Positions 1 through 37,106 of a stretch of 43,268 nt of DNA are shown one piece after another. Below the pieces are notes generated by a model. That model searched no databases. It was given only the letters and a program-made list of their open reading frames with translations, and had not been told where the DNA came from. Every line of letters starts with the position of its first letter. The first letter of the stretch is position 1. This DNA comes from Acholeplasmatales bacterium (GTDB lineage Bacteria; Bacillota_I; Bacilli_A; Acholeplasmatales; Anaeroplasmataceae). The stretch lies in the NCBI GenBank assembly GCA_016280975.1, contig JAEEHU010000012.1, positions 1 to 43,268 of the forward strand, written 5' to 3'. The position numbers were made by a program, and so were the translations under genes.

Positions 1-3000
1 ACATCTTATAGTGTAGTTGCAAATGTTAATGTTCAAAATACAAGCAATACTCCAGTTGATATGTATTTTGCGAATAGCAATGCCCCAGATACTGTATATT
101 CTAATTCAGGATTTAACTGTACTGGAAACGCAACAACTAATACAACACTTACAATGCAAGATTCATATTATGATGTAAATAATTATGTTGTGTATTATAG
201 AGGAACTGATGATGGTAATGGTCATACATATTCTAGTTTATATCTATGGAGTGCTGCAAGAAATATGACTAGTGTATCTTATACAATTACATATAGTTAT
301 ATATACGATTCAGGTTCAAGAACATCTAGTAATAGCAATACAGTTAATTCAAATAGCACTAGTATTACATTACCGACACTTACAAATGTTCAAACATTGG
401 CTGGTGGTAATAAAATAAATAGTGCGACTGTTACTTTAAACATTTCAAACTCATATAATAATTATCACTTATACATTTATAATAAAGATTCATCTTCAGT
501 TATAGCTGATTTAGGTACTGTAAGCACTTCAGGTACAACTTATAACTTAGATTTAACTCAGTATTATGGCACTAATATAGCAGTTGGATATATATATAAT
601 AATGAATTTTCAGAATATAATGGATTTAGAATATCTTCATATACATATACAGTTAATTATTATAGGGGTGTATCAAATGATACTATTTATAAAAATAGAT
701 TGTTAAACTTAGATATTAATTATACTGATGTAAGAAATGATTATTTATGTTATATTTATAAGAATTCAACTAATAATAGTACACTTCATAATAACTTCAT
801 TAAGAGTAATTTAACAATGTTTGCTCCAATCAATACATCAGGAAATGATTCAAGTCCAACTAATCCGTTTGTAAATCAATTATCTAATTCAGAAAAGATT
901 GATTTTGCAAAGGTTGTACTAAAGAATAGTAATGCTGCATTATACTATTTAATTAGTGTTAAGTGTGACACTAATGAAAAGCTTGGTGATGTATTAAAGT
1001 TAATGAGTAATGCAACTGGTGGTTATTCATTTATAGCAGATGGTATAACTAAACTAGTTAATACAAACTATAGTGGAACATCAACTGATTTAATTGATTA
1101 TTACTCAAATGTATTAAAGACATTAATTGCAACATATGTAGTTGCTGATTATAGAACTATCTATAACCAAAATGGTAATGTTTATAATACAGTTTATAGA
1201 GCATTAGTTGATAATGCTAATACAAATGCAACTGGTTCATCAACAACAGGAACATCATTTAAGAATAATATCCAATATATTAATTCAGATGGTACGTTTA
1301 CTGCAACTAAGTATGACTTATTCGTTGAATACATACTTGGTCAAGGAATAACAACATCTGGTTATGGTATATTCGCACTTGCATCATCTCGTGGTATCCA
1401 AAATGGTGCATTCATTCCAGATAATGTTGATTTAACTAAGATGGATGTAAATTATGATACTACAGCTAAAATTGGTTCAACAGATGTAATTGTATTATTA
1501 GATGATCCTGATTCATCATGGAGAGATAATACAGGTGCATCAACTCAATCAACATATGATACTTCAGATACTACATCTATTAACTATCATGTGAGAGTTG
1601 AGATGAAGCAATTAGTTAAGGCTATTTCTAATATCATATTTGAGCTTGATTTAGAATGTGATGATACAACATTATATTCATCTCAAGAACAAATTGATTA
1701 TGAAAATTATATTATTACATATTATGTATCTGAGGCATACTTAAATTACATTAAGGGTGCATCAAGTTTAGAAATATTAAATCTACTTTATGCAGATACT
1801 GCAACTTCAAATAAGGCTAAGGGAGATTCAATATCATTAACAAAGACTTATACATATTCTGAAGTAACAGTTGATTCATCTACATTTGATTCATCAAAGC
1901 ATTATACATATTCAGCTGGTACATATTCACCTGCAGCATCATATGTTGAAGGAACAAAGTATTATGAATTATCACAAATAGATGCAACAAATGCTATTAC
2001 AATCATTCCAGAAGAAACAGCATATACTGCAAACTATACTTTAAGATTTATAAAGATTGATAATTCAGTTACTACATTCGCATATAACGAAATGCGTTAT
2101 CTAACAGCAGAAAATGCAACTACATATGCAACTGCAACAAATGTTAGAGCTATTCCATATTATGGTGCAACAATCAAATTTGAGGTAACAGCTCCTAATT
2201 TACCAGACGGAATGGATTTAAAGTCATTCTTCACTATTACTGGTCAAACTAAGAACTCAACTTGGGAATTTGATTTAAATACTTCAAATAATGGTATTGT
2301 TTCTTCGGGTGTTGCATACATAGTTGTAAATGTAGATATAAGTATGAGTCAAGGAACAAAAGCCTTTGTTCTTAACTTATATGGCTCAAGAAAGACAGTT
2401 AACTTAACAAAAGAAGCTAACTCTAACAACCTAATAACTAAGTTTGGTTATGATGGTACTGATTATACATCAACACTTCAAGGTGGAAGTGATGCAGAAA
2501 GTACAATTTTATATGGTAGAGCATTCAATTACTCCGATTTAACTGAACCATATATTAAGACTACCGATGCAGCACTTGTTGATGGTAAGACATATTATGT
2601 TCAAAATGGTTCAAATGGATCATATTCATATTCTAAGGTATTATCACCAGTAGTAGATGATATAGCAACATATTATGTTCCAAATCCTGATTTCTACCTA
2701 TATGCATTTGAGATTTCTTCAAACGCAACAGTAAAGATTACTGCAACAAAAGAAATAGTAGAATATGATTTAATGAAATATACAGTAGAGTATTTAGTAA
2801 CATCTGAATCAGGTGATTCTGAAACTTATAAGCATATATTACAAGAGAATTCATATTTCGAAAATGGTCAAGCTTATGGATCATTATATAAAGATGGTGA
2901 TACAGTAGATTCTACAGGAATTCATACAGTTGACTTTATTTATAATGACGCAACAGTAGCTGGTAACCTATCAAGCTTAACTTATAGCGAATCAGCAGCT

Positions 3001-4857
3001 GATAACTATGTTGCGGTTAAGTTCAATAGAGGTTACGAACCTCAATATAGAATTAGATATGACTTATCTAACTTCTATGGAGATATAAGTAAATATACTA
3101 TATCTGAAGGTGAATATAATGTAGCAGTAACAGAACCACAAGATACATATGCCGGTATTACAATTACACTTGATGACGAAATTGAACCAGGCACATACAT
3201 GTATATATTCACATATACTAATAGTGGTGAGTGGACAGCAGAAGGAACATATGTTGCATTAGCTGATGATGCTGAATTTGATGAAAACGAAACATATTAT
3301 ATCTTGCAAAATGGAGAATATACAGTTCGTGCTGTAACAGCAGCTACATTCGCAAGATTAAAGTCTCGTTTATTTACATATCAAATGGGAACTGGTTCAA
3401 CCTATACAAGAACTTATAACTTCCCTGCACTATATATCATTAAGGACTTCGCAACTGATGCATTATTCCATAAGTTGACATTCCTTGATGAATCAGTCGT
3501 ATTAGGTGGTACAGCAACAGTTATGTTACCTACAACACCTATTAGTGCTGGTGCGGCTAATACAGATAGTGATGCTATTCCATATAGTACAGTATTCAGT
3601 CAAGTAAATGATATTGTAATTAACCCTAACTCAATTGAGTATTCTGATTCAGCACAAGCTCCATCAGTAACTGATTACTATACAGTTGGTACAGTTTCTG
3701 ATACAGACCTTGAATATTATGCTCCAACAATTAAAGTTGAGGATAATGCACAAGTATTTAAGTATACAACATTAACTAAACTTCGTAGATATGGTGATAA
3801 AGAAGTAAATCCACAAACAGAGAAGGATAGTGAAATATTATCTACAAGAGATGATATGTTACTATATATTCCATTCGCTACAGGAAGTGGAACAACAACA
3901 TCATATGAAGTATTCCTAGTTTTAGTTGATTCTAATATGAATTGGAAGAAAGTATATCCAAGATTATTTAATGGTGATACAACAGATGCATCATCACTAA
4001 TTCATACATATACTTCGACATTCAATACTTTAGCAGCAGAAAAGAATCCATCATTAACTACATTCTCATATGATTTAGAAAATGATGGAACCGCTGAAAC
4101 TTATACAATAGCAAGCTTCGCAGGAAGCACTGATATAACTGATGAAAATAATAAGAATATATCACTTTACATGGATTATATCGGTACACCACTTCAAGAT
4201 CACTTCTGGTATATCTCTTACGTAGTATTCTCTGAATATTACTTAAGTAAGGGAATGACAGATAAGAATAATGATGGTGTTGATGATTTAGGTGCTGTAA
4301 GATATTATCATATCTCAATTGTCGACGCATCTAACACAGTTTACTTCGATATTTCACTATACGCTCCTGAGGATTTAGATCTAAATGAAATTTACTTAAC
4401 AATTTCAGAAAATCTATATGATGGCGTAACTCCAACAGGTTCAGCTCAAATAAGCTGTTACTTAGAGAAGTGCTATGATGAGAATAATGATCCAATCCAT
4501 GGTACAAAAACAGATGATTCAGGATTAGTATTATATCAATTAAGAGTTAATTATAGTATGGCGGCCATGCCGGCGGGCTACTTCACGTTCTATGTAGATT
4601 TACCAAATGGTTATGGTGCAATATGCTATACAAGTAAAGAGAATAAATTAGATAAGACAACCGCTCCAGGTAGCTCAAATACAAAGTCATTCTTACCACA
4701 TACAACAATCATTCCAATTACAGTTGGATTAAGAATTCTTGTAAGTGAATTAACTGGTGCAGATACATCAGTATGGGCAGTTAATACTTCAGACTTATAT
4801 ACTAGACAAGTAGATTATAAGGGTGAAGAGCCAACTAACAATGCTAATAATGGCTAA
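1..4857 (+). CDS. Very large Asn/Thr/Tyr-rich putative secreted or surface protein, 5' truncated by the window start
   Basis: Frame is open from base 1 (TSYSVVANVNVQNTSNTPVDM...) through the listed ORF at 61 to TAA at 4857; low-complexity extracellular-like composition; no family recognised. Confidence 0.8.
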   Translation, partial: TSYSVVANVNVQNTSNTPVDMYFANSNAPDTVYSNSGFNCTGNATTNTTLTMQDSYYDVNNYVVYYRGTDDGNGHTYSSLYLWSAARNMTSVSYTITYSYIYDSGSRTSSNSNTVNSNSTSITLPTLTNVQTLAGGNKINSATVTLNISNSYNNYHLYIYNKDSSSVIADLGTVSTSGTTYNLDLTQYYGTNIAVGYIYNNEFSEYNGFRISSYTYTVNYYRGVSNDTIYKNRLLNLDINYTDVRNDYLCYIYKNSTNNSTLHNNFIKSNLTMFAPINTSGNDSSPTNPFVNQLSNSEKIDFAKVVLKNSNAALYYLISVKCDTNEKLGDVLKLMSNATGGYSFIADGITKLVNTNYSGTSTDLIDYYSNVLKTLIATYVVADYRTIYNQNGNVYNTVYRALVDNANTNATGSSTTGTSFKNNIQYINSDGTFTATKYDLFVEYILGQGITTSGYGIFALASSRGIQNGAFIPDNVDLTKMDVNYDTTAKIGSTDVIVLLDDPDSSWRDNTGASTQSTYDTSDTTSINYHVRVEMKQLVKAISNIIFELDLECDDTTLYSSQEQIDYENYIITYYVSEAYLNYIKGASSLEILNLLYADTATSNKAKGDSISLTKTYTYSEVTVDSSTFDSSKHYTYSAGTYSPAASYVEGTKYYELSQIDATNAITIIPEETAYTANYTLRFIKIDNSVTTFAYNEMRYLTAENATTYATATNVRAIPYYGATIKFEVTAPNLPDGMDLKSFFTITGQTKNSTWEFDLNTSNNGIVSSGVAYIVVNVDISMSQGTKAFVLNLYGSRKTVNLTKEANSNNLITKFGYDGTDYTSTLQGGSDAESTILYGRAFNYSDLTEPYIKTTDAALVDGKTYYVQNGSNGSYSYSKVLSPVVDDIATYYVPNPDFYLYAFEISSNATVKITATKEIVEYDLMKYTVEYLVTSESGDSETYKHILQENSYFENGQAYGSLYKDGDTVDSTGIHTVDFIYNDATVAGNLSSLTYSESAADNYVAVKFNRGYEPQYRIRYDLSNFYGDISKYTISEGEYNVAVTEPQDTYAGITITLDDEIEPGTYMYIFTYTNSGEWTAEGTYVALADDAEFDENETYYILQNGEYTVRAVTAATFARLKSRLFTYQMGTGSTYTRTYNFPALYIIKDFATDALFHKLTFLDESVVLGGTATVMLPTTPISAGAANTDSDAIPYSTVFSQVNDIVINPNSIEYSDSAQAPSVTDYYTVGTVSDTDLEYYAPTIKVEDNAQVFKYTTLTKLRRYGDKEVNPQTEKDSEILSTRDDMLLYIPFATGSGTTTSYEVFLVLVDSNMNWKKVYPRLFNGDTTDASSLIHTYTSTFNTLAAEKNPSLTTFSYDLENDGTAETYTIASFAGSTDITDENNKNISLYMDYIGTPLQDHFWYISYVVFSEYYLSKGMTDKNNDGVDDLGAVRYYHISIVDASNTVYFDISLYAPEDLDLNEIYLTISENLYDGVTPTGSAQISCYLEKCYDENNDPIHGTKTDDSGLVLYQLRVNYSMAAMPAGYFTFYVDLPNGYGAICYTSKENKLDKTTAPGSSNTKSFLPHTTIIPITVGLRILVSELTGADTSVWAVNTSDLYTRQVDYKGEEPTNNANNG

Positions 4858-5056: not shown

Positions 5057-8000
5057 TTAAATTGTAATCTTGAATGTTATAGTTAATAATGGTCTAACTG
5101 AGCAGATGTCAACGTATCCATCTCTTCCGACATCGTTGCAAGAATCTAGTCCAGTAGAAGCCATAAATGAAACCCATAAGCCTAAGTCGACATCATAGAA
5201 ATAATCTTTTAACCACCAGTCTTCTGCTATTTGATTTGCATCTATTACGCTTTGATATGTAGTGTAAGTTGCTTCATCAAGAAGAGTTATTGAATCATTT
5301 CCATATGTTGTTACTAATCCTTCAACAACTGTTTTAATTGTTGAAGTTTCATAATCTATAGCAGATCCATCGGTGTCATATTCGATTTGATTTCCAATTG
5401 CTGTTTTACTTAATAATGTATAAGTAGAAGTCGAATTAACACTATCTATTGATGGGTCGTCTAGTATTATCCATGAATAAGTTCCATACTCGATTGTTTC
5501 AAGATATGTTGGCATTGTAATAGAGTTATAATTTTCTCCATATAAATTATCGATTATAACAACTTTAACTGGGCTATCGTTAATATAATCTGGAATTATT
5601 ATATCAGTTGAACTTGTAAATGAACCATCTTTAATTCCAACTTTATAATAACCTGTCATTTCAGTTAAATCAAACTTAGTTGATAAGTTATTATTTCCAT
5701 CATAACAAGCATATAAATGAGTATTAGTTGCATTTACATCTAATATTGTAACTTGAGTTGTTAGATTAATATCTGAATACCAAGTAACATTTGCTATAGA
5801 TTGTAATGCATAGCTTGATGTTGAAGTATTGTATTTTTCAGTAACAGTACTTGAAGCTGTTCCATCATTATAGTGATATGTTATGTCAATTGTCTTTAAG
5901 TTGAAATAGAAGTCAATATAAGATGAACCATCACCTAAAATTGGAAGTTCATATTTGCCATTATTAGGTCCATCTTCTGTAATTGGAGTAGCAGTCACAC
6001 CATTTACTTTGACATCTGTTAATTCATAACCAGTTTGAGCAGCTGGTGCACTAATGTATACTGCTTCACCAGACACACCATCGTGTTCTACTGTTGGTAT
6101 AGAAGTATAATAATCATCTGCATAATTTTGAAGTTTTGTATTGATTGCGTAATCAATATCGGTTTTTGCTGTAAAGTATGCATAATATGCACCAGAATTA
6201 TTAGCTACTGTTTCAGTGGCGTTAGTTGAGTATTGTAATCCATTATGTGTCCAATAAGCAAAGTCATAACCAGTTGCAGGAGTAGCAGTTATAGTCCATG
6301 TGTCATTACCATTATCAGTCTTAGAAACTGTTCCCTGTCCATTGTTAGGTGTTTCAGATACCTGAACTACGATTCCTGACATAGACCATCTTGCTTCATA
6401 TGAAGTATTCATTCCACTGAATGAATTCATAGTTACAAGTCTTTCGAATGTTTGAGCATAAGTTAATGTTAATTCAGTTCCTGATTCTACTTGATTAGCA
6501 CCGCTATACCAACCTGTCCAGTTGTAGTCTGCATTATTTGTTACAGCTGTTAATGTTAATCCGTTAGTTACTATATCGAATGACTTAGTTATTGATAATC
6601 CATTTTCTTCAGGATTACGAGATATTGGCATAATCTCTGGATCAATCCATAATGCATAAATATACTTTGTGCTAACTGGAGCTTCTAAGCTACATGTATA
6701 TGAAATTGTTTCACCACTTACTAAGTCTCTTGTATTATTAATTGAATCCCACCAACCAGCAAATGTGTAAGTATTGTTAGCTGGCATTGTATAAGTGATT
6801 GTAGAACCACTAATAGAAGGAGTAGCAGTTGATGTTACATTGACATCACTATAAGTGATTGTTATTTGATTGTTTTCATCCTCTGTATATCCAAGTAGCT
6901 TATTTGAAACAATTACATTATTTGCAATGAATCTTGCAACGAAAATTGTATCAGTATCTGGCATTTGTGTTTGATATGTTGCATTTGAACTTACTAATGC
7001 ATTATCAACATACCAACCATTGAATATATTACCAGTAGTAGGAGTAGCAGTTAATGTTACATTATTTCCTGCAACATACTTACCATTTAAGCTATTAACA
7101 TTACCAAGTGTCGTATCATTTGATTGAGTTAATACTCTTACCCATCTTGCTTCATATATGATAGATGAGGCAGGCATGTTAAATGTATATATTAATGAAG
7201 ATGATACCTTACTATCATTTGATGTATCATACCAACCAATGAATGTATAACCATTATTAGTTGTTGCTGTTAATGTAACAGAAGTATTCGCTGATACAGC
7301 TATAGCATTATTTGCTGTTGCACCATAAACATTAGATGATACAGAACCCTTAGTTGAGCTTTCTGTTCTATATGTTAATGTGTAAGCAAAATACTTAGCC
7401 TTGTAAACAACAGTATCAGTAGTTAATGTAAATGTTAATGCTGGATCTGCTTGGATGAATTGATCATTTGAATTATACCAGCCTAAGAATGAGTATCCAA
7501 TGTTAGCTGTTGCTGTAAATGTTACTTCATCGCCTACAACCTTACTTGACATATTAGATGTAACACTTCCTGGAGCGTTAGATTCTTCATTATTTAAGTA
7601 AGTTTGATATGTTGTATTTGAAGGAGTAAATCCTGCATATAATACTATATTAGCTGGAGTAGTAGTATCAATAGTTGTAACTGCTGTTCCAGAGTAGCTA
7701 TCTAAATGGAATCCATCAAATCTATATGTATATGCTATTAGGTTAACTAAATTAATAGTTCCTTCATTATAGTTATAATAATATGTTGTTGGATTTAAAT
7801 TCTTATTAGTTACTAAGTTAGATTGAATATTATAATTATAAGTTATTGTATATTCTTCTAATTCCCACTTAGCATAAATTGTCTTATTAGCTGTTATATT
7901 TTCAATATCAGTTATTTGATTTGAATAATTTCCGGCATTATATGTTTGATACCAACCCTTAAATTCATAATAAGTCTTTGATGGAGCTTTTAATTCAAGT

Positions 8001-11000
8001 CTATCATAGTATGTTAATGTACTTACGTTATCAGTATCATTTGTTCCACCATCTAGAACATATGTGATTTGATATTCATTATATGTCCAGTTAGCATATA
8101 CTTCTATATCACCAACTGAGTGAGCAGGAATAGTTGTAATTGAAGTTCCACCAATAGAACCAGTTGTCCAACCATTAAATGTTGCCTCTGTTGCATTAGT
8201 TGGAGTTGGAAGTGTTATAGTATTACTTTCAACTGTGAATGTAGTAGTAGATGATACTGTAGCATCATGTAAATTAGAATATGTAACATTATATGTATTT
8301 AAGCTTGAATGAGCTACAACTAATAAATCAAATGTGTTTTCTATTTGTGTAGCAGTTGCATTATTAGTTGCATTTGACATATTGATTTCAGTTACAACTG
8401 TATTAGATGTACCAAGTGTCCAACCTTCAAAGCTATAACCATTATCAACTGCTATAACTAAATCACCTAAATCAAGTGGAGTAGTCTTTAATACTGTACT
8501 TGTGATAGTAGTAGTATTGTTAGGGTTTGTTGCACTTTGAAGCTCTGTTGGAATATCGTATGTAATATTGAATGTTAACACAACTTCAATGATTTCAAAT
8601 GTAACATTTTTACTGCCTGTATAGTTACCAATACCAGTTATAGTTACTGTTGCTGTACCTATATCAGTGTTATCTGAATAAGAAAGAGTATAATCAACAC
8701 CATTAGTTAATGTGTGGTTGTTATGTGTAACAGTGAAATTAGTAGGTGTAATTTGATTACCTGTATATGCTTGATTTGAAATAGGAGATACAGTAGCATC
8801 TGCTATATCTAAGCTATTAATATCAAATGTTACTTGTCTTGAACCTGTATAGTTATTAGTACCACTTATTGTTGCTGTATAAGTATCAACTGCTTGTAAA
8901 GTTTTATCATATTGAACTGCATAATCAGTTGGAGCAAGTAAATTGTTGTTTCTTTCAGTATCAATTATTGTGATAGTAGGAGTAATAACTGAACCTGTGT
9001 AGTCATAATCAGGAATACTAATTGTTATTACATAATTATTTAAGCTATCTTGCTTACTTAAATCCTTAGGTAGGATTGTGAAGTTAGCTGTTGTCTCTCC
9101 ACCAAAGTCACCTTTACCCTTTATTGTAGCAACTGCTAAATTAGGGTTATTAGTTGTATTTGATGCATTTATATTATTTGTATAAGTAACTGTATAATCA
9201 GTATTTACTGTTAAAGGATTAGAGTTATGTGTAATTGTAAGTGCTGGAGTTACAGCTGAACCAGTAAATGCTTGGTTAAGAATTGCTGCAATGTCTGCAT
9301 CACTTATTTCATATAGATAAACTCTAAATGTTACATCTTTTGTATTTCCGTAGTTATTTATACCTGTGATAGTAACTGTTGCATTACCAGAAGAAGTATT
9401 TCCTGTATAAGATAATGTATAATCAGTATCCTTTACTAAAGTAGTAGTACCATCAGTTACTGTTGGCTTTGGAGTAAGAGGTGAGCCCTCATACTTCATA
9501 TCTGCAATTTCGGATACAGTAGCTGATGCTATTGATTTAGGATCAATAGTAAAGTTCTTAGTTATTGTACCAGTATAGTTACCCTTACCTGTAATAGTAA
9601 TAGTAGCAGTACCAGCATCTACATTATTTGAATATGAAACAGTATAATCAGTGTTATTAATTAATGGATTTAATAAATTATTTTGATTAACTACTATTTC
9701 ACTATTTAATACAGTTATTGCTGAACCTGTATAAGTTTTATTTGAAATATCACCAACTGTGATATCTGCTGATGCTATATCCTTTGCAACAATTGTGAAT
9801 GTTACTTGCTTAGAGTTCTTGAAATCACCAATACCTGTAACAGTAATTGTTGCAGTACCAACATTTGTATTTGATGTTGCTGATACAGTATAGTCTGTAC
9901 CCTTAACTAAAGGGTTAGCTCTAGATTCATGAGTGATTACTAAATCAGGAAGTATAGCAGTACCAGTATATGTTTGATCTGCTATAGCTTGGATTTCTGT
10001 ATCGTTTATATCATATACATTCTTATTGATTGTAAATTGTAAATTAGTTGAACCTGTGAAGTTAATTCCACTGAACCAAATATAATAATTACCTGGTTCA
10101 ATAGGATCCTTTGTAACAACAGGAGTAGATCTATCTGTATACCAAATAGTGAATTCAGAATTATCAAGCACTGTTGTTCCTAACTTAATTACTGGTGTAA
10201 TTGTTATAGGTTGACCATTTATTGTTTCTTGGTATGCTGACTCAACATTTTCAAATGTTAATACATTAATATTAAGCTTATTGATTGTCCATGTTACATC
10301 AATAGTAGAATCATTTGTATCTAACCACCTAGTATTTAGAGTATCCTTTAATGCTAATGTTACTTGATAATTACCAGCATTAGTTTGAGCATAAGTAGGA
10401 TCATCTAACTCATAATCTAAATTAGCTGCGATTACTGGTGCTTTAGGAGTTGCATCATAATATACACTTTGAAGTGTTGGAGTTGCAATTTGCTTTTTAT
10501 TAATAGTAAATGTAGTAGTTCTACTACCAGTGAAATTACCTATACCTGTAATAGTAATAGTAGCAGTACCAGCATTTATATTATTTGTATAAGTAATAGT
10601 GTAATCAGTATCCTCTGTTAATTCTGTTGAATTATGAGATACTGTAATTGCTGGAGTTATAGCTGAACCAGTATATGTTTGATCTGCTACACTTGATATT
10701 GTAATAGAAGCATCAGTAACAGAAAGTGGTAGGATTTCAAATGTTACATTTTTAGTTCCTACATAGCTACCCATACCAATTATTTGAATTGTTGCAGTAC
10801 CAACATTTGTATTATTAGAGTAGTTACCAATTGTATAATGAGTTCCTAATACTAGTGTACTTGATTCAAATGTAACAGTAGGAGTAGGCTCGATAGCTGA
10901 ACCAGTATAAGTTTGATTTGCGACAGTTACTGTTGCACTACTTATATTATATTCATCAGCTGTTACTGTAAATTGATGCTCGTAAGTTCCATCTAAGTTA

Positions 11001-14000
11001 ACACCATTTGTAATATGTAAGATATAAGTTCCTACATCTTCTAATGATGCAATTATTGCTGATGGGTCAAGAGCAGTAGTAATATAGATATTAAATTCAC
11101 TATTATCTAATACTACATTATTAAATGTAATAACAGGAGTAACATCTATTGGACTTCCTGTCTTAGCATAATTATCATCAAGTCCTGTTATAACTGCATC
11201 ATCTAAGCTTGCTTGATTAATTGTCCAGTCAACGTCAATTGTTGCATTATTTGTTGTAGCCCACTTAGTATTTGATGTATCAGTTAATACTAAAGTTACT
11301 TGATATGTAGCAGCATTTGTTTGAGTGTATGCTGGATTATTAAGCTCAAAGTCATTAGATGTAATAGTTGGTGCTTGAGCAGTTGCATTATAAGTTACAC
11401 TTTCAAGAGTAGGTGTAGCTATTTCTTTTTTGTTTATTGTAAAGTTTTTGATAGTAGAACTTCTGAAATTACCTATACCTGTAATAGTAACCTTTGCAGT
11501 ACCTGCATTTATATTATTTTCATATGTTAATTCATAATCAGTATCTTTTACTAATGTATGTGTACCAAGAGTAACTGTAATATTAGGTGTTATTGCAGAA
11601 CCTGTATATGTTTGAGCTTCAATATTAGATACTGTGATAGATGCATCATAAATATCTAATTTAGAAATTGTTGTAGTTACATATTTGCCTTGTGGTGAAT
11701 CAATGTGATTTGAATCACCCATGATATAGTAGTAAATTGTATAATCACGAGGAGCATTTCCTGTTGGAATAGTAGTAGAATAGTTATCTTGATTATCTAG
11801 TGAATAATAGATATCTCCACCTATAGCTTCTGGACTATTTACAATTAGCGCTTGATTCTCCATAGTATAAACAAGATTTGTGCCCTCTGGCTCAGTTTGA
11901 TAATCAGATTGAGCCTTAGCAATTGTTACAGTTATACTATCTATTTCAGATGATTCATGATCAGTATCTGCATCAATATAGAAGTAAACTGTATATTCGT
12001 CTGCATTTGTTCTAGTTGGAATAGTAGTTGTAAATCCACTTTCCTCAGATAATGAGTATTTAATAGAACCACAAGAAGTAGTACCTCCTGTAACTAGTTC
12101 TTGAGCACTGCCGTTATAAATTAATTCATTAGCTTCAGGTAATGTATCGAATGTAGCTATTGGCTTTAATATAACAACATCTACATATGCAACATCAACA
12201 TCATTGTAATTTTCATCACCTTGAATGAAATAGTATACTCTATATTTTCCAGCTAGTTTTTTTGTAGGAATAGTCTCTTCATAAACTCCAACTTCAGTTA
12301 GAGAGTACTTAAATGTTCCGGCATTTGTTGTACCTGGAGTAATTAACTCTAAATCATCACCATTTTCTCTTAAATTCTCTTTAGGAGTTGGTGCTGTATA
12401 TGTTGGATTTGCCTTTACGATATTAAATATAAGTGTTAATTCACCACTAAAGTTACCCTTACCAGTAATAGTAATAGTAGCTTCACCAATTGCTATATTA
12501 TTTGCATAAGCGATTGTGTAATCAGTATCAAGAACTAAATCATTAGTATCCCATGATAAAGATACACTTGGTTGTATTTCTTGACTAGTGTAAGGTTTAT
12601 CGCTATCATCAAAACTTGAAATCAATGTATCATCAAGTTCTTTAGGATTAATAACGAACTCATAAGTCTTATCTTCAGTAGAATCGTCATTCCAACAAGT
12701 ATTTGTCTTATCAGTAAGTGAAATAGTAACTGTGTAATTACCAGCATCAGTTTTTACATTATTTGTAATAGTATAATCGTCAGATTCTGCTAAATCATAA
12801 GTTACGTTTTCTCCGTTGTTATATGTATAAGCCATATTAGATGGAGCAGGGATTTCAATTTGTTTTTGGTTAATAACAAATACGAATTCTTTATCTTCTG
12901 TAGTACCATCGCTCCACTTAGTATTTGTTTTATCCTTTAGTGAAACAGTTACTGTGTACTCACCAGCATCAGTTTTTACATTATTTGTAATAGTATAATC
13001 GTCAGATTCAACTAACTCATATGTGATTTCTTCGCCAGTATAAGTATATGTAGCTGTAGGAGCTATAGGAGCTTCAATTTCTCTAGGATTAATAACAAAT
13101 GCGAATGTCTTATCCTCTGTAGTACCATCGCTCCACTTAGTATTGTTCTTATCCTTTAGTGAAACGATTACTGTATATGTACCTGCATCAGTCTTCTTAT
13201 TATTAGTAATAGTATAATAATCAGACTCAGCAAGTTCATATGTTAATTCACTACCTGTATAAGTATAAGTTGCAGTTGATGCAGAAGGAGCTTCAATCTC
13301 CTTTGGATTGATAGTGAATGTATATGTCTTATCCTCAGTTGTATTATCACTCCAACAAGTATTTGTCTTATCAGTAAGCGAAATAGTAACTTGATAAGTA
13401 TCCGCATCAGTCTTCTTATTATTAGTAATAGTATAATAGCTTGATTCAACTAAATCATAAGTTATTTCACTACCTGTGTAAGTATATGCCATATTTGATG
13501 GGGCAGGTATTTCTATTTTCTTTTGAGTAATATTGAATTCAATTGATTTAGAATCCTTATAATTACCCTTACCAGTAATAGTAACTGTACCCTTACCAGC
13601 ATTTATATTATCACCATAAGTGATATCATAATCAGTTGCGTTAAGTCCCTGAACAGTTATATCTGGAGTAAGCTTGCTTCCTGAATATACCTGATCTGGA
13701 ATAGCAGCTATTGTTGCGATATCAGTAATTGATTTTCTACCAATTGTATATTGATATCTTAAATCATTACTATTTCCACTTGTAGCCCACTTATAATTTA
13801 TAGTATCTACTAAATGAATAAGAGCTTCATAAGTACCAGCATTAGTTTGTGTATTTTCAGATATTTGATATAGTTGGTTATCGGCAACTGTATAAGTTAT
13901 AGCCGCGCCAGTATAATCAAATGAGTTATTACCTGGGTCTGGTTCTAATACACCCTTCTTATCAATAGTAAATGTATATTTTATATCTTCGCTATTTTTA

Positions 14001-14281
14001 GTATTTTTCCAAGCATATTTATTTTTGTCCTTAAGTGAGATTACTACCTCATAGCTTCCAGCATTAGTTTGCTTATTGCCTGAAACTGTATAGAAGTCAC
14101 TAGGGACTATTGTATAAGTTTGCTCTTCGCCATTATAAGTGTAGTTAATTGTATCCTCAACTGGTTCAGCAATATATGTTTTGCCACCATTTACAGAAAC
14201 TATAACTACAGCTGTAGTAGTACCAACTACTGCACTACCTCCAATAGCTGAAAGTAAAATAATTAGCGCTTTTTTAGTCAT
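5057..14281 (-). CDS. Giant repeat-rich surface protein (N-terminal signal/anchor, MBG/YDG-like repeats, InlB-like repeats, DUF6273-like C-terminus)
   Basis: 3074-aa ORF; N-terminus MTKKALIILLSAIGGSAVVGTTTAVVIVSVNG; recurrent YTGSAITP..NINAGTATVTITGKGNY units, FxGWY units, and C-terminal WWLKDYF...SVRPLLTI. Confidence 0.9.
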   Translation of the reverse strand: MTKKALIILLSAIGGSAVVGTTTAVVIVSVNGGKTYIAEPVEDTINYTYNGEEQTYTIVPSDFYTVSGNKQTNAGSYEVVISLKDKNKYAWKNTKNSEDIKYTFTIDKKGVLEPDPGNNSFDYTGAAITYTVADNQLYQISENTQTNAGTYEALIHLVDTINYKWATSGNSNDLRYQYTIGRKSITDIATIAAIPDQVYSGSKLTPDITVQGLNATDYDITYGDNINAGKGTVTITGKGNYKDSKSIEFNITQKKIEIPAPSNMAYTYTGSEITYDLVESSYYTITNNKKTDADTYQVTISLTDKTNTCWSDNTTEDKTYTFTINPKEIEAPSASTATYTYTGSELTYELAESDYYTITNNKKTDAGTYTVIVSLKDKNNTKWSDGTTEDKTFAFVINPREIEAPIAPTATYTYTGEEITYELVESDDYTITNNVKTDAGEYTVTVSLKDKTNTKWSDGTTEDKEFVFVINQKQIEIPAPSNMAYTYNNGENVTYDLAESDDYTITNNVKTDAGNYTVTISLTDKTNTCWNDDSTEDKTYEFVINPKELDDTLISSFDDSDKPYTSQEIQPSVSLSWDTNDLVLDTDYTIAYANNIAIGEATITITGKGNFSGELTLIFNIVKANPTYTAPTPKENLRENGDDLELITPGTTNAGTFKYSLTEVGVYEETIPTKKLAGKYRVYYFIQGDENYNDVDVAYVDVVILKPIATFDTLPEANELIYNGSAQELVTGGTTSCGSIKYSLSEESGFTTTIPTRTNADEYTVYFYIDADTDHESSEIDSITVTIAKAQSDYQTEPEGTNLVYTMENQALIVNSPEAIGGDIYYSLDNQDNYSTTIPTGNAPRDYTIYYYIMGDSNHIDSPQGKYVTTTISKLDIYDASITVSNIEAQTYTGSAITPNITVTLGTHTLVKDTDYELTYENNINAGTAKVTITGIGNFRSSTIKNFTINKKEIATPTLESVTYNATAQAPTITSNDFELNNPAYTQTNAATYQVTLVLTDTSNTKWATTNNATIDVDWTINQASLDDAVITGLDDNYAKTGSPIDVTPVITFNNVVLDNSEFNIYITTALDPSAIIASLEDVGTYILHITNGVNLDGTYEHQFTVTADEYNISSATVTVANQTYTGSAIEPTPTVTFESSTLVLGTHYTIGNYSNNTNVGTATIQIIGMGSYVGTKNVTFEILPLSVTDASITISSVADQTYTGSAITPAITVSHNSTELTEDTDYTITYTNNINAGTATITITGIGNFTGSRTTTFTINKKQIATPTLQSVYYDATPKAPVIAANLDYELDDPTYAQTNAGNYQVTLALKDTLNTRWLDTNDSTIDVTWTINKLNINVLTFENVESAYQETINGQPITITPVIKLGTTVLDNSEFTIWYTDRSTPVVTKDPIEPGNYYIWFSGINFTGSTNLQFTINKNVYDINDTEIQAIADQTYTGTAILPDLVITHESRANPLVKGTDYTVSATSNTNVGTATITVTGIGDFKNSKQVTFTIVAKDIASADITVGDISNKTYTGSAITVLNSEIVVNQNNLLNPLINNTDYTVSYSNNVDAGTATITITGKGNYTGTITKNFTIDPKSIASATVSEIADMKYEGSPLTPKPTVTDGTTTLVKDTDYTLSYTGNTSSGNATVTITGINNYGNTKDVTFRVYLYEISDADIAAILNQAFTGSAVTPALTITHNSNPLTVNTDYTVTYTNNINASNTTNNPNLAVATIKGKGDFGGETTANFTILPKDLSKQDSLNNYVITISIPDYDYTGSVITPTITIIDTERNNNLLAPTDYAVQYDKTLQAVDTYTATISGTNNYTGSRQVTFDINSLDIADATVSPISNQAYTGNQITPTNFTVTHNNHTLTNGVDYTLSYSDNTDIGTATVTITGIGNYTGSKNVTFEIIEVVLTFNITYDIPTELQSATNPNNTTTITSTVLKTTPLDLGDLVIAVDNGYSFEGWTLGTSNTVVTEINMSNATNNATATQIENTFDLLVVAHSSLNTYNVTYSNLHDATVSSTTTFTVESNTITLPTPTNATEATFNGWTTGSIGGTSITTIPAHSVGDIEVYANWTYNEYQITYVLDGGTNDTDNVSTLTYYDRLELKAPSKTYYEFKGWYQTYNAGNYSNQITDIENITANKTIYAKWELEEYTITYNYNIQSNLVTNKNLNPTTYYYNYNEGTINLVNLIAYTYRFDGFHLDSYSGTAVTTIDTTTPANIVLYAGFTPSNTTYQTYLNNEESNAPGSVTSNMSSKVVGDEVTFTATANIGYSFLGWYNSNDQFIQADPALTFTLTTDTVVYKAKYFAYTLTYRTESSTKGSVSSNVYGATANNAIAVSANTSVTLTATTNNGYTFIGWYDTSNDSKVSSSLIYTFNMPASSIIYEARWVRVLTQSNDTTLGNVNSLNGKYVAGNNVTLTATPTTGNIFNGWYVDNALVSSNATYQTQMPDTDTIFVARFIANNVIVSNKLLGYTEDENNQITITYSDVNVTSTATPSISGSTITYTMPANNTYTFAGWWDSINNTRDLVSGETISYTCSLEAPVSTKYIYALWIDPEIMPISRNPEENGLSITKSFDIVTNGLTLTAVTNNADYNWTGWYSGANQVESGTELTLTYAQTFERLVTMNSFSGMNTSYEARWSMSGIVVQVSETPNNGQGTVSKTDNGNDTWTITATPATGYDFAYWTHNGLQYSTNATETVANNSGAYYAYFTAKTDIDYAINTKLQNYADDYYTSIPTVEHDGVSGEAVYISAPAAQTGYELTDVKVNGVTATPITEDGPNNGKYELPILGDGSSYIDFYFNLKTIDITYHYNDGTASSTVTEKYNTSTSSYALQSIANVTWYSDINLTTQVTILDVNATNTHLYACYDGNNNLSTKFDLTEMTGYYKVGIKDGSFTSSTDIIIPDYINDSPVKVVIIDNLYGENYNSITMPTYLETIEYGTYSWIILDDPSIDSVNSTSTYTLLSKTAIGNQIEYDTDGSAIDYETSTIKTVVEGLVTTYGNDSITLLDEATYTTYQSVIDANQIAEDWWLKDYFYDVDLGLWVSFMASTGLDSCNDVGRDGYVDICSVRPLLTITFKITI
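5060..5480 (-). other. C-terminal DUF6273-like domain within the giant surface protein
   Basis: WIILDD...YTLLSKTAIGNQIEY...WWLKDYF...GYVDICSVRPLLTI resembles the DUF6273 pattern (W.vL....LL.s......WWLRs......GvRPal). Confidence 0.5.
6200..8450 (-). repeat. InlB B-repeat/Flg_new-like units in the giant surface protein
   Basis: Repeated GYSFEGW, FNGWTTGS, FKGWYQTY, GYSFLGWYNS, GYTFIGWYDT, IFNGWYVDN motifs separated by TYxAxW-like strands. Confidence 0.65.
8550..14160 (-). repeat. Array of MBG/YDG-like repeats in the giant surface protein
   Basis: Many copies of IA(D/N)QTYTGSAITP.ITV....L..DTDYT.SYTNN.NAGTATITITGIGNYTGS...FTI; four closely similar units of about 72 aa (IEAP...YTYTGEEITYELVESDDYTITNN.KTDAG.YTVTVSLKDKTNTKWSDGTTEDK.FVFVINP) at about 12640-13520. 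Confidence 0.8.
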
Positions 14282-15452: not shown

Positions 15453-15851
15453 ATGAAATTTGACACAAACAACCATTCAGTATTTAGCCTTAATTACCAT
15501 CTAGTTATGGTTGTTAAATATAGAAGAAAAGTAATAAATGATATTATATCAGATAGATTAAAGGAAATATTTGAATATATTGGTAAAACATATCATATTA
15601 CAATAGTTGAATGGAATCATGATATTGATCATGTACATGTGCTGTTTAAGGCTTGTCCTAATACTGAGATATCAAAATTCATGAATGCATATAAATCTGC
15701 ATCATCTAGACTTATTAAACAAGAATATCCAGAAATTAGAGAAAAGCTATGGAAAGAATACTTTTGGTCTAAATCATACTGTTTAATCACAACAAGTGGT
15801 GTTACTATTGATATTATTAAAGAATATATTAAAACACAAGGTGAAAAATAA
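15453..15851 (+). CDS. tnpA: IS200/IS605 TnpA Y1 HUH transposase
   Basis: HIDHVHVLFKA HUH motif, C-terminal YIKTQ with candidate catalytic Tyr; GAGG RBS upstream. Confidence 0.92.
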   Translation: MKFDTNNHSVFSLNYHLVMVVKYRRKVINDIISDRLKEIFEYIGKTYHITIVEWNHDIDHVHVLFKACPNTEISKFMNAYKSASSRLIKQEYPEIREKLWKEYFWSKSYCLITTSGVTIDIIKEYIKTQGEK

Positions 15852-17002
15852 TGAAGAAAAACAAAGCGTTTAAGTTCCGAATTTATCCTACAAGTGAACA
15901 AAAGGTGTTACTTGGTAAAACATTCGGATGTTGTCGCCTTGTTTTTAATTATTTTTTAAATTTAAGTACTAAAAAATATGATGAAGAAAAAATAACATTA
16001 AAGTATAAAGATTATGCATTAATGCTAAATGACTTAAAAAGAGAAAAAGAATTTTTAAAAGAAATAGATTCAATATCTTTACAACAAGAATTAAGACATT
16101 TAGCAGACTCTTTTAATAATTTCTTTAAATATAAAAAAGGATACCCAAAATATAAAAGAAAAGCAATGCATAATGATTCATATTCGACTATGAACGTAAA
16201 TGATAACATTGAAATATTAGATAAAAAATATATAAAATTACCAAAGATTGGTAAAGTTCAATGTAAAGTACACAGAGATATAACAAATGATTATCAATTA
16301 AAATCAGCAACTATATCTAGAGTACCATCAGGTAAATATTATGTTTCAGTATTATATGAATATGAAAAAGAGCCTATTAGTTATAAAATTGATGAATCTA
16401 AAATATTAGGACTAGATTATCAAATGAAGAATCTATTCATATCTGATAATATCATTAAGACCAATGATGATTTTTTAAAGTTATATACAAAAAATGAAAA
16501 GAGATTACAATTTTTACAAAAGACATTATCAAGAAGACAAAGACCAAATCATAAAAAAGAAATAGAATCATCAAAAAGATATGAAAAACAAAGGATTAAG
16601 GTAGCTAAGCTATTAGAATATCAAAAAAACAAGAGAATCGACTATTACAATAAATTATCAAAAGAAATAGCCAATCAATATGATATAGTTGTAATAGAAG
16701 ATATTAATATGCAAGATATGGCAAAAGAAAGCAAATTAAATAGTAAAGCTACATATGACAATGGTTTTGGAATATTTAGGAATATGCTTAAATATAAATT
16801 AGAAAATTTAGGTAAAAAGTTAATTATAGTAGATAAGTATTTTCCATCAAGTAAGCTATGTAATGTATGTGGATATAAAAATGAATTATTAGCAATAACA
16901 GATAAAACATGGGAATGTCCAAACTGTAATACAGTACATAATAGGGATATAAACGCTAGTATAAACCTTAAAAAAGAAGGATTAAGAATATATAATTCCT
17001 AA
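15851..17002 (+). CDS. tnpB: TnpB RNA-guided nuclease of an IS200/IS605 element
   Basis: N-terminal FRIYPTSEQKVLL, RuvC motifs LGLDYQ / VVIEDINMQ / NRDINASINL, zinc finger CNVCG...CPNC; TAATG overlap with tnpA. Confidence 0.92.
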   Translation: MKKNKAFKFRIYPTSEQKVLLGKTFGCCRLVFNYFLNLSTKKYDEEKITLKYKDYALMLNDLKREKEFLKEIDSISLQQELRHLADSFNNFFKYKKGYPKYKRKAMHNDSYSTMNVNDNIEILDKKYIKLPKIGKVQCKVHRDITNDYQLKSATISRVPSGKYYVSVLYEYEKEPISYKIDESKILGLDYQMKNLFISDNIIKTNDDFLKLYTKNEKRLQFLQKTLSRRQRPNHKKEIESSKRYEKQRIKVAKLLEYQKNKRIDYYNKLSKEIANQYDIVVIEDINMQDMAKESKLNSKATYDNGFGIFRNMLKYKLENLGKKLIIVDKYFPSSKLCNVCGYKNELLAITDKTWECPNCNTVHNRDINASINLKKEGLRIYNS

Positions 17003-22910: not shown

Positions 22911-22932
22911 TTATATTTAATAATTAAAAAAA

Positions 22933-23020
22933 TGTGCTATAATAAATATGTCGAAAGACAAAGCGAAATCAAAACTAACGAAAAGGGAACTGTTGGTGCA
23001 GTTCCCTTTTCTCATCTGAG
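22933..23020 (+). ncRNA. Candidate sRNA cassette copy 1 (extended -10, GNRA hairpin, linker, terminator)
   Basis: TGTGCTATAAT (22933-22943), GTCGAAAGAC, linker, AAAAGGGAACTGttggtgCAGTTCCCTTTT (22981-23010), then CTCATCTGAGAAAA. Confidence 0.55.
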
Positions 23021-23102
23021 AAAATAATAAAGCGAAATCAAAAATTCAACCTAAATCGAATTGCAACTGTTTTTTGTTGTCTTATATAAGATAATCAAAC
23101 TC

Positions 23103-23210
23103 TTTACATATAAATATAATGTGCTATAATAAAGATGTCGAGAGACAAGCGAATTTGAGATGAACGAAAAGGGAACTGCTGGATACAGTTCCCTTTTCTC
23201 ATCTGAGAAA
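23103..23210 (+). ncRNA. Candidate sRNA cassette copy 2
   Basis: TTTACA, 16-nt spacer, TATAAT (23125-23130) with TGTGC; GTCGAGAGAC; linker; AAAAGGGAACTG...CAGTTCCCTTTT (23167-23197), then CTCATCTGAGAAAA. Confidence 0.6.
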
Positions 23211-23466
23211 ATAATAAAGCGAATTTTAGATGAAATCCTAAATTGGATTATTATGGTTATTTTTAGTTATTATGTACAATATAATAACAAGTAATACCAA
23301 ATACTCCATTTGGAAAATCTCCTTATTCGCTCATTGTTTCCTCCGAGCAAAATGATTCTCATCGCCTATTATTCCTTTCAAATGTTCCATATAAAAATAT
23401 GGCATTTTATTTATATCATAAAATCATTAAAAAAGCAATTAGCTAAGCCATAATTTCGACTTTAAG

Positions 23467-23532
23467 TTTTTGAGAAAAATAGTTAAATTAATAGTTAAAA
23501 GTAAATATTTTTTGATGTATTTTTCTCAAAAA
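23467..23532. repeat. Perfect 15-bp inverted repeat with a 36-nt loop
   Basis: TTTTTGAGAAAAATA (23467-23481) and TATTTTTCTCAAAAA (23518-23532). Confidence 0.7.
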
Positions 23533-36706: not shown

Positions 36707-37106
36707 GGGCTTGTTATGGATTCGCTGTGATCTATGAAGGTATGTAAGCATGTGGTGGGATTATCGGCCACCTAAAAAACGTCGGGGTTTTTAATAAACG
36801 CTGAAGACAATGATTATGCATTCTTAGCAGCTAGAAGCAATTCAGTTGCTCATTATGCTTTTGCCTAATCTAATAGTATTAGGCGTCCTTTAATCTATTT
36901 CCTACGATAGATTATATGGGCTCAACTCAAGTAGGATATATATTTAGGCTGCTATTCTAAGCTTAAATATGAATTTAATAGAATGTAGTTAAGTTTTGGT
37001 TTGTCTGTTCGCTAAAGGCTTAATGAAAATTTTGAATAGAATAAACATGTAGAAAGCATATTGGATTGGGTTATATACGGGAGTTCGAGTCTCCCCAGGT
37101 CCACCA
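36707..37106 (+). ncRNA. ssrA: tmRNA
   Basis: 5' GGGCTTG pairs with 3' CAGGTCC plus ACCA; T-arm-like GGGAGTTCGAGTCTCCC; tag frame GCT(36800)...TAA(36868) = AEDNDYAFLAARSNSVAHYAFA. Confidence 0.95.

What the first reader, a model, noticed from the sequence alone, without database searches (positions are those of the whole stretch)
22929..23234. Tandem pair of sRNA-like cassettes with conserved ends and divergent, duplicated linkers
Two cassettes about 187 bp apart each contain the extended -10 TGTGCTATAAT, a GNRA-capped hairpin placed near the expected transcript start (GTC-GAAA-GAC in copy 1, GTC-GAGA-GAC in copy 2), a roughly 20-nt divergent linker, and a near-identical terminator AAAAGGGAACTG...CAGTTCCCTTTT. 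That is the layout of a short bacterial sRNA with 5' cap hairpin, seed and Rho-independent terminator. Unusually, each copy's linker recurs after its terminator: AAAGCGAAATCAAAA at 22960 and 23029 in copy 1 (15/15), AAGCGAATTTGAGATGAA at 23147 versus AAGCGAATTTTAGATGAA at 23217 in copy 2 (17/18), with offsets of 69 and 70 nt. The duplicated segment therefore differs between copies but matches within a copy, suggesting target-site-like duplication, gene conversion, or a functional repeat. The sRNA role is inference.
Basis: partly seen in the sequence, partly recalled or inferred. Interest (0 to 1): 0.68.

Follow-up and report, generated by a model that had tools for sequence, protein, structure and literature searches.

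The report
New type I toxin-antitoxin RNA module
The two "sRNA cassettes" are antitoxin RNA genes of an apparently undescribed family of type I toxin-antitoxin loci in rumen and gut relatives of Acholeplasma: a tiny membrane-peptide gene lies face to face with the antitoxin, and the odd duplicated linker is the antisense address by which each antitoxin recognises its own toxin message.

Summary
In detail: two cassettes 187 bp apart, each with an extended -10, GTC-N4-GAC hairpin, linker, terminator, and the linker repeated after the terminator. Copy 2 faces a convergent 23-codon gene (23309-23238, minus; MEYLVLLVIILYIITKNNHNNPI) with Shine-Dalgarno, promoter and structured leader, whose mRNA would end at the same terminator. 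A covariance model finds 72 such RNAs in 26 of 55 genomes of the family; 50 of 66 with enough sequence have a convergent hydrophobic ORF (random positions: 1.3%). The linker match holds inside a locus and fails between loci (0 of 5000 permutations); within a genome the own partner is strongest in 34 of 35 tests. So the repeat is the complementarity between antitoxin RNA and toxin 3' UTR, giving paralogues separate addresses. Layout resembles enterococcal par (Fst), but the repeat sits in the toxin 3' UTR, not at its ribosome site, and the peptide matches no Pfam, NCBIfam or PDB family. The toxin mRNA also has conserved 5'-3' complementarity that would mask its leader. Copy 1 is an antitoxin whose toxin gene is missing. 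Toxicity, transcription and RNase III cleavage are inferred, not shown.

The parts
22933..22943 (+). extended -10 promoter (TGTGCTATAAT) of antitoxin RNA copy 1
   Evidence: sequence; -10 conserved in the RNA alignment
22950..23015 (+). antitoxin RNA copy 1 (predicted transcript about 66 nt; toxin-less copy)
   Evidence: covariance model hit 22938-23015, 78.4 bits, E 8e-12; no convergent small hydrophobic ORF of its own
22960..22979 (+). copy 1 linker L1 (antisense address)
   Evidence: AAAGCGAAATCAAAA repeated at 23029-23043
22980..23011 (+). copy 1 terminator hairpin
   Evidence: 13-bp perfect inverted repeat (I5)
23029..23043 (+). copy 1 second linker copy L2; the duplicated segment continues to a remnant (CCTAAAT.G) of a toxin 3' end, then diverges
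23120..23130 (+). extended -10 promoter of antitoxin RNA copy 2
   Evidence: sequence
23137..23202 (+). antitoxin RNA copy 2 (RNA II-like), cognate to the toxin gene at 23309-23238
   Evidence: covariance model hit 23125-23202, 68.9 bits, E 6.4e-10
23147..23165 (+). copy 2 linker L1, pairs with toxin mRNA 3' UTR (-19.8 kcal/mol predicted)
23166..23198 (+). shared bidirectional intrinsic terminator of antitoxin RNA and toxin mRNA
   Evidence: 13-bp stem (I6); T enrichment on both sides across the family
23217..23234 (-). L2: its complement lies in the toxin mRNA 3' UTR and is the antitoxin target; it also lies within the cis 5'-3' complementarity
23238..23309 (-). toxin-like ORF, 23 aa MEYLVLLVIILYIITKNNHNNPI
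   Evidence: relatives MEYLVILVIILVII... at 50 of 66 loci; substitutions at codon positions 72/24/121
23319..23324 (-). Shine-Dalgarno AAGGAG of the toxin ORF
   Evidence: sequence; conserved in the 5' UTR alignment
23323..23334 (-). mini-ORF ATGAGCGAATAA (M-S-E-stop) with its own GGAGG (23344-23340), stop overlapping the toxin SD; stem GCTC/GAGC (23348-23345 / 23332-23329) encloses the GGAGG
   Evidence: same start-two codons-stop layout in 23 of 44 loci
23403..23438 (-). predicted toxin promoter: TTGCTT (23438-23433), 17-nt spacer, TG-A-TATAAA (-10 23415-23410), start near 23403
   Evidence: sequence; -10 column conserved in alignment of 50 leaders
23160..23405 (-). predicted toxin mRNA, about 240 nt, with 5'-3' long-distance pairing
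   Evidence: fold z-score -7.4

Best explanation
The locus is a chromosomal type I toxin-antitoxin module plus an extra antitoxin copy. From the plus strand a roughly 66-nt antitoxin RNA is made (5' hairpin GTC-N4-GAC, address segment L1, terminator). Facing it, the minus strand makes a roughly 240-nt mRNA for a 23-aa transmembrane peptide that ends at the same, bidirectional terminator. The second linker copy (L2) lies in the 3' UTR of that mRNA, so in RNA it is the complement of L1: the two RNAs meet at the complementary terminator loops and at L1:L2'. The duplicated linker is therefore the recognition address; it drifts between loci but is kept matched within a locus, so paralogous antitoxins do not cross-react. 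Binding most likely removes the toxin mRNA (RNase III cleavage of the duplex, as in TxpA/RatA). The free mRNA is probably held silent by pairing of its leader (mini-ORF, SD) with the same 3' UTR stretch until the 3' end is trimmed, as in AapA or Hok. Copy 1 is an antitoxin whose toxin gene has been lost. Shown by comparison: conserved architecture, coding conservation, L1:L2' co-variation, cis 5'-3' complementarity. Inferred: transcription, toxicity, cleavage, lock release. The confidence given is for a type I toxin-antitoxin module with L1:L2' as address; I give the decay route about 0.55 and the 3'-trimming step about 0.4.
For: Convergent hydrophobic ORF at 50 of 66 RNA hits against 1.3% at random positions under the same criteria; peptides strongly alike, ME[YF]L-hydrophobic, often ending KK, start ATG or GTG with SD; substitutions at codon positions 1/2/3 = 72/24/121 in close pairs. 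L1 pairs with own toxin 3' UTR at -14.8 kcal/mol vs -6.6 with other loci's, 0/5000 permutations; no specific pairing with the 5' UTR. Within genomes with several modules, cognate pairing strongest in 34/35. Terminator stems keep pairing through changes on both sides; T-runs on both sides of the stem. Leader vs own 3' UTR -28.7 vs -23.3 kcal/mol, 0/5000 permutations, control null; window toxin mRNA folds at z -7.4. A second family of the order keeps everything with a different 5' stem (GTGCGAAAGCA), L1/L2 and peptide MDYLVVLVVVLVTITIMLRDKR. RNase III is encoded in this genome. Published par_pAD1 has convergent RNAs of about 230 and 40 nt, a shared bidirectional terminator and direct repeats giving complementarity (PMC7472228).
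Against: No expression or toxicity data. The antitoxin does not pair with the ribosome site, and its target lies in the stretch that would lock the leader, so binding could open the leader unless degradation follows at once; this step is the weakest. 16 of 66 testable RNA hits lack a nearby ORF (some are weak hits or decayed copies). The window peptide ends NNPI and lacks the basic KK end usual in relatives. Some of the weakest model hits may be ordinary terminators.
Confidence: 0.85

Rival explanations
1. A cis-antisense regulated small membrane protein that is not a toxin (for example a regulator of a transporter), with the same RNA-RNA recognition.
For: Only sequence is known; peptides have no family in Pfam, NCBIfam or PDB. 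Antisense control does not by itself prove toxicity.
Against: Multiple paralogues per genome, tandem duplications, repeated loss of the ORF with retention of the antitoxin RNA, double safety (leader lock plus antisense) and a 20-27 aa hydrophobic peptide are the usual marks of type I toxins.
Confidence: 0.1
2. A trans-acting sRNA pair with linker seeds for distant mRNAs, the downstream repeat being a by-product of duplication.
For: sRNA-like anatomy with cap hairpin, single-stranded linker and terminator.
Against: The linker varies freely between loci yet stays matched to the adjacent 3' UTR; no conserved seed; Hfq not found in this genome.
Confidence: 0.03
3. Target-site duplication or recombination scar around a mobile hairpin element.
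For: Direct repeats differ between copies and match within a copy.
Against: The sequence upstream of the first repeat (promoter, hairpin) and downstream (toxin 3' UTR, ORF, leader) is conserved with the hairpin across 26 genomes; terminator stems vary compensatorily.
Confidence: 0.01
4. Same type I module, but the antitoxin represses translation by a structural switch at a distance (as SR4 on bsrG) rather than by triggering decay. (A sub-model of the best explanation; its confidence is not exclusive of it.)
For: The antitoxin target lies within the cis complementarity to the leader (75% of target nucleotides, though 64% of the whole 3' UTR is in that duplex), so binding must rearrange the leader; SR4 precedent in PMC4147584.
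Against: The simple expectation is that losing the 3' partner frees the leader; I saw no conserved alternative helix that hides the toxin SD, only a hairpin with the mini-ORF SD in its loop.
Confidence: 0.25

Closest known systems
par_pAD1 / Fst family (RNA I-RNA II) of Enterococcus and other Firmicutes
   Same: Convergent toxin mRNA (about 230-240 nt) and short antitoxin RNA; shared bidirectional terminator; direct repeats in DNA that give RNA-RNA complementarity; repeats poorly conserved between loci and thought to set specificity; intramolecular masking of the toxin leader (PMC7472228).
   Different: The second repeat copy lies in the toxin 3' UTR, not at its initiation site, and no specific pairing of the antitoxin with the 5' UTR was found; one repeat rather than DRa and DRb; peptide 20-27 aa without the published PXXXG motif; no Pfam/NCBIfam hit.
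TxpA/RatA and BsrG/SR4 of Bacillus subtilis
   Same: Convergent genes, antitoxin meets the 3' end of the toxin mRNA; decay by RNase III or distant structural change (PMC4147584).
   Different: There the complementarity is a continuous 75-120 nt overlap; here it is a short terminator overlap plus a non-collinear duplicated address segment. TxpA is longer (59 aa).
AapA/IsoA (Helicobacter) and Hok/Sok
   Same: 5'-3' long-distance pairing that masks the leader in the full-length mRNA; AapA also multi-copy on the chromosome (PMC6733600); Hok has an upstream reading frame (mok) coupled to the toxin (PMC4147584).
   Different: No convergent layout with a duplicated address; sequences unrelated.
Ibs/Sib (E. 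coli)
   Same: Very short, almost purely hydrophobic toxin peptides (own knowledge).
   Different: Sib RNA is antisense to the coding region; different layout and phylum (own knowledge).

Membership tests
type I toxin-antitoxin systems (general) | short hydrophobic peptide gene with ribosome-binding site next to an antisense RNA gene | tested here: met
   50 of 66 loci vs 1.3% random; window ORF 23309-23238
type I toxin-antitoxin systems (general) | antisense complementarity between RNA and toxin mRNA, specific to the pair | tested here: met
   (computed pairing)
type I toxin-antitoxin systems (general) | peptide toxic when overproduced, RNA suppresses it | not testable with these tools
   needs an expression experiment
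Fst/par family | convergent promoters and shared bidirectional intrinsic terminator | tested here: met
   predicted from sequence and conserved in the family; transcripts not measured
Fst/par family | direct repeats placing antitoxin pairing on the toxin translation initiation site | tested here: not met
   second repeat copy is in the 3' UTR; L1:5' UTR pairing no better than between loci
Fst/par family | Fst/Ldr peptide profile with PXXXG motif | tested here: not met
   no Fst or Ldr profile among Pfam matches up to E = 10, none in NCBIfam; PXXXG absent by inspection of 50 peptides
TxpA/RatA | long continuous 3' overlap between toxin mRNA and antitoxin | tested here: not met
   predicted overlap limited to the terminator (about 33 nt) plus a separate address
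TxpA/RatA | repression by RNase III-dependent decay | not testable with these tools
   only the presence of an RNase III gene was checked
AapA/IsoA-like or Hok-like mRNA lock | 5'-3' long-distance pairing masking the leader in full-length mRNA | tested here: met
   computed complementarity own vs other 0/5000 permutations, fold z -7.4 for the window mRNA; not probed experimentally
known Rfam RNA families | match at gathering score | tested here: not met
   only the tmRNA in the window passes; weak matches in the region all far below cut-offs

The most novel reading that the evidence does not exclude
A distinct style of type I control: the antitoxin carries a diverged sense copy of a toxin-leader element and competes with the leader for one 3' UTR strand, so a single 3' UTR segment serves both as the cis lock and as the trans address. 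A tripeptide mini-ORF next to the toxin Shine-Dalgarno gates translation, and orphan antitoxin copies persist after toxin loss as cross-protecting (anti-addiction) RNAs.
Probability: 0.3. Interest if true: 0.72.

Novelty: new variant of a known kind. Interest (0 to 1): 0.55.

Why it matters
It adds an apparently undescribed, multi-copy type I toxin-antitoxin family in the order Acholeplasmatales, a lineage poor in known sRNA systems, with a peptide that none of the libraries searched names (so these genes are invisible in annotated genomes). The family offers dozens of natural, mutually orthogonal antisense addresses on one scaffold, which makes it possible to read how RNA-RNA specificity diverges after duplication, and it joins a cis lock and a trans address in one 3' UTR segment.

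Tried and rejected
Rfam at gathering and relaxed thresholds: nothing relevant. Pattern scan of named genomes: 8 loci, of which L103 (inside a Bacteroidales coding gene) and L106 (Clostridium methylpentosum) lack a terminator hairpin and are chance. Viral contigs, phages and plasmids: no match to this RNA or locus. PHROGs, Pfam and PDB with the peptides: only sub-threshold matches typical of transmembrane composition (best PHROG 0.013, YxzE 0.026). Antitoxin pairing with the toxin 5' UTR, expected by analogy with Fst: tested, absent. The inverted repeat at 23467-23532 as a conserved module part: its motif occurs upstream of only 7 of 48 toxins, though above background (0.04 per 240 nt).

Full report
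What is there. Both predicted RNAs fold much better than shuffles (z -4.9, -5.6).

The missing half. On the minus strand, facing copy 2, lies a 23-codon ORF (23309-23238, MEYLVLLVIILYIITKNNHNNPI) with AAGGAG nine nucleotides before its ATG, a leader, and a plausible extended -10 promoter (TGATATAAA, 23418-23410, with TTGCTT 17 nt upstream). Its mRNA would run about 240 nt and end at the terminator of copy 2, read in the other direction. The second linker copy is in its 3' UTR.

Family. A DNA search of the own genome and 100 relatives found further copies. A covariance model built from 16 of them finds 72 RNAs in 26 of 55 genomes of the taxonomic family, 26 of 160 genomes in the order, all hits in two families, and none outside the family in a sample of 395 genomes of the class. 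Named contigs with the same size and match position as hit contigs are titled Acholeplasmatales bacterium RGIG3211 (goat reticulum), Acholeplasmatales bacterium RUI388 and 'Bacillales bacterium UBA7004', so the window most likely belongs to the order Acholeplasmatales as used in GTDB (inference). This genome holds four copies: the two here, a complete module on contig 101 (MEYLVILVIILVIMILLIRTY) and a toxin-less one on contig 66.

The peptide. Of 66 RNA hits with at least 250 nt of downstream sequence, 50 have a convergent 15-40 aa hydrophobic ORF with Shine-Dalgarno ending within 115 nt of the terminator and beginning M[EDKVQ][YFS]; random positions in the same loci give 1.3%. The peptides are mostly 20-27 aa, consensus MEYLVILVIILVII..., often ending in KK or RK. 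Among close pairs, substitutions fall 72/24/121 on codon positions 1/2/3, the mark of selection on protein. No model in Pfam, NCBIfam or PHROGs and no PDB sequence recognises them above threshold.

What the duplicated linker is for. Because the two RNAs are transcribed towards each other, a direct repeat in DNA is a complementarity in RNA. Across 44 loci with distinct linkers, L1 pairs with its own toxin 3' UTR at a mean of -14.8 kcal/mol and with others' at -6.6; no permutation of 5000 reached the observed sum; the reverse-complement control and the toxin 5' UTR show nothing comparable. In genomes with two to six modules the cognate 3' UTR is the best partner for 34 of 35 linkers.

A second layer. 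The toxin leader has a conserved element (consensus GGAGGAAACGATGAACGTGTAA...AGGAGG...ATG): a Shine-Dalgarno inside a hairpin loop whose stem differs from locus to locus but keeps pairing (GCTC/GAGC here, CGTTC/GAACG, ACACG/CGTGT, CACAG/CTGTG, CTAC/GTAG elsewhere), and in 23 of 44 loci a mini-ORF of start, two codons and stop placed just before the toxin Shine-Dalgarno (ATGAGCGAATAA here). The toxin 3' UTR is complementary to this leader (-28.7 kcal/mol own vs -23.3 other, 0/5000 permutations, control null). The full window toxin mRNA folds with z -7.4 with its two ends paired. This is the kind of 5'-3' lock known for AapA and Hok (PMC6733600; PMC4147584). The antitoxin target lies in that duplex (75% of target bases, against 64% of the whole 3' UTR, so the overlap is largely expected and not in itself a signal).

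Mechanism. Best supported: antitoxin RNA in excess meets new toxin mRNA at the complementary terminator loops and at L1:L2', and the duplex is cut by RNase III, which this genome encodes. Without antitoxin the locked mRNA persists, is trimmed at the 3' end, and the leader and toxin are translated; the peptide acts on the membrane. Every step from the meeting of the RNAs onward is inference. Since antitoxin binding takes away the leader's partner, decay is more natural than a translational block, but a structural switch such as SR4 on bsrG cannot be excluded. Hfq was not found.

Copy 1. It keeps promoter, hairpin, L1, terminator, L2 (15/15) and the last bases of a toxin 3' end (CCTAAAT.G), then diverges into the promoter of copy 2; no toxin ORF remains. 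Toxin-less antitoxins immediately before a complete module also occur in G007, G008, G009 and G018, some with decayed L2. Copy 1's address pairs with the copy 2 toxin mRNA only at -9.4 vs -19.8 kcal/mol; with the shared terminator stem included, predicted binding is intermediate (-16.7 vs -26.3 cognate, -1.3 for the contig 101 RNA). It may be a relic or a weak back-up.

Known systems. The layout is that of par_pAD1/Fst (PMC7472228), but the defining placement of the repeats at the initiation site is not met and the peptide is not recognised as Fst; so it works like a par-type module and is not filed as Fst. I found no paper in the searched library describing type I modules in Acholeplasma relatives; one paper states that type I systems are known from Tenericutes in general (PMC12390103), so presence in the phylum is not new, while this family appears to be. 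The library is partial, so novelty is provisional.

Noticed in passing
window 23467-23532: Imperfect 31-nt inverted repeat (TTTTTGAGAAAAA ... TTTTTCTCAAAAA) between the toxin promoter and the GGDEF/EAL-like gene; the motif occurs upstream of 7 of 48 family toxins, above background but not general.
   Followed up: partly
L084 (G021 contig 180), L088 (G007 contig 43): Arrays of several complete modules spaced about 950 bp with different addresses; in L084 an ORF fragment resembling the end of an FtsW/RodA-type gene is duplicated along with the module.
   Followed up: partly
window 15453-17002: IS200/IS605-like pair: a Y1-transposase-like ORF (132 aa) directly followed by a TnpB-like ORF (383 aa), by eye. 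Its guide RNA end was not examined.
   Followed up: no
window 61-4857 and 5057-14281: Two giant repetitive surface-like proteins (1598 and 3074 aa), the latter with many YTYTGSAITP-type repeats.
   Followed up: no
window 36707-37106: tmRNA with tag AEDNDYAFLAARSNSVAHYAFA, whose end AHYAFA differs from the common ALAA/AVAA.
   Followed up: no
L010 1446-1523 (minus; G000 contig 66): Fourth antitoxin-like RNA of this genome without L2 or toxin ORF; may be a true orphan or a repurposed sRNA.
   Followed up: partly
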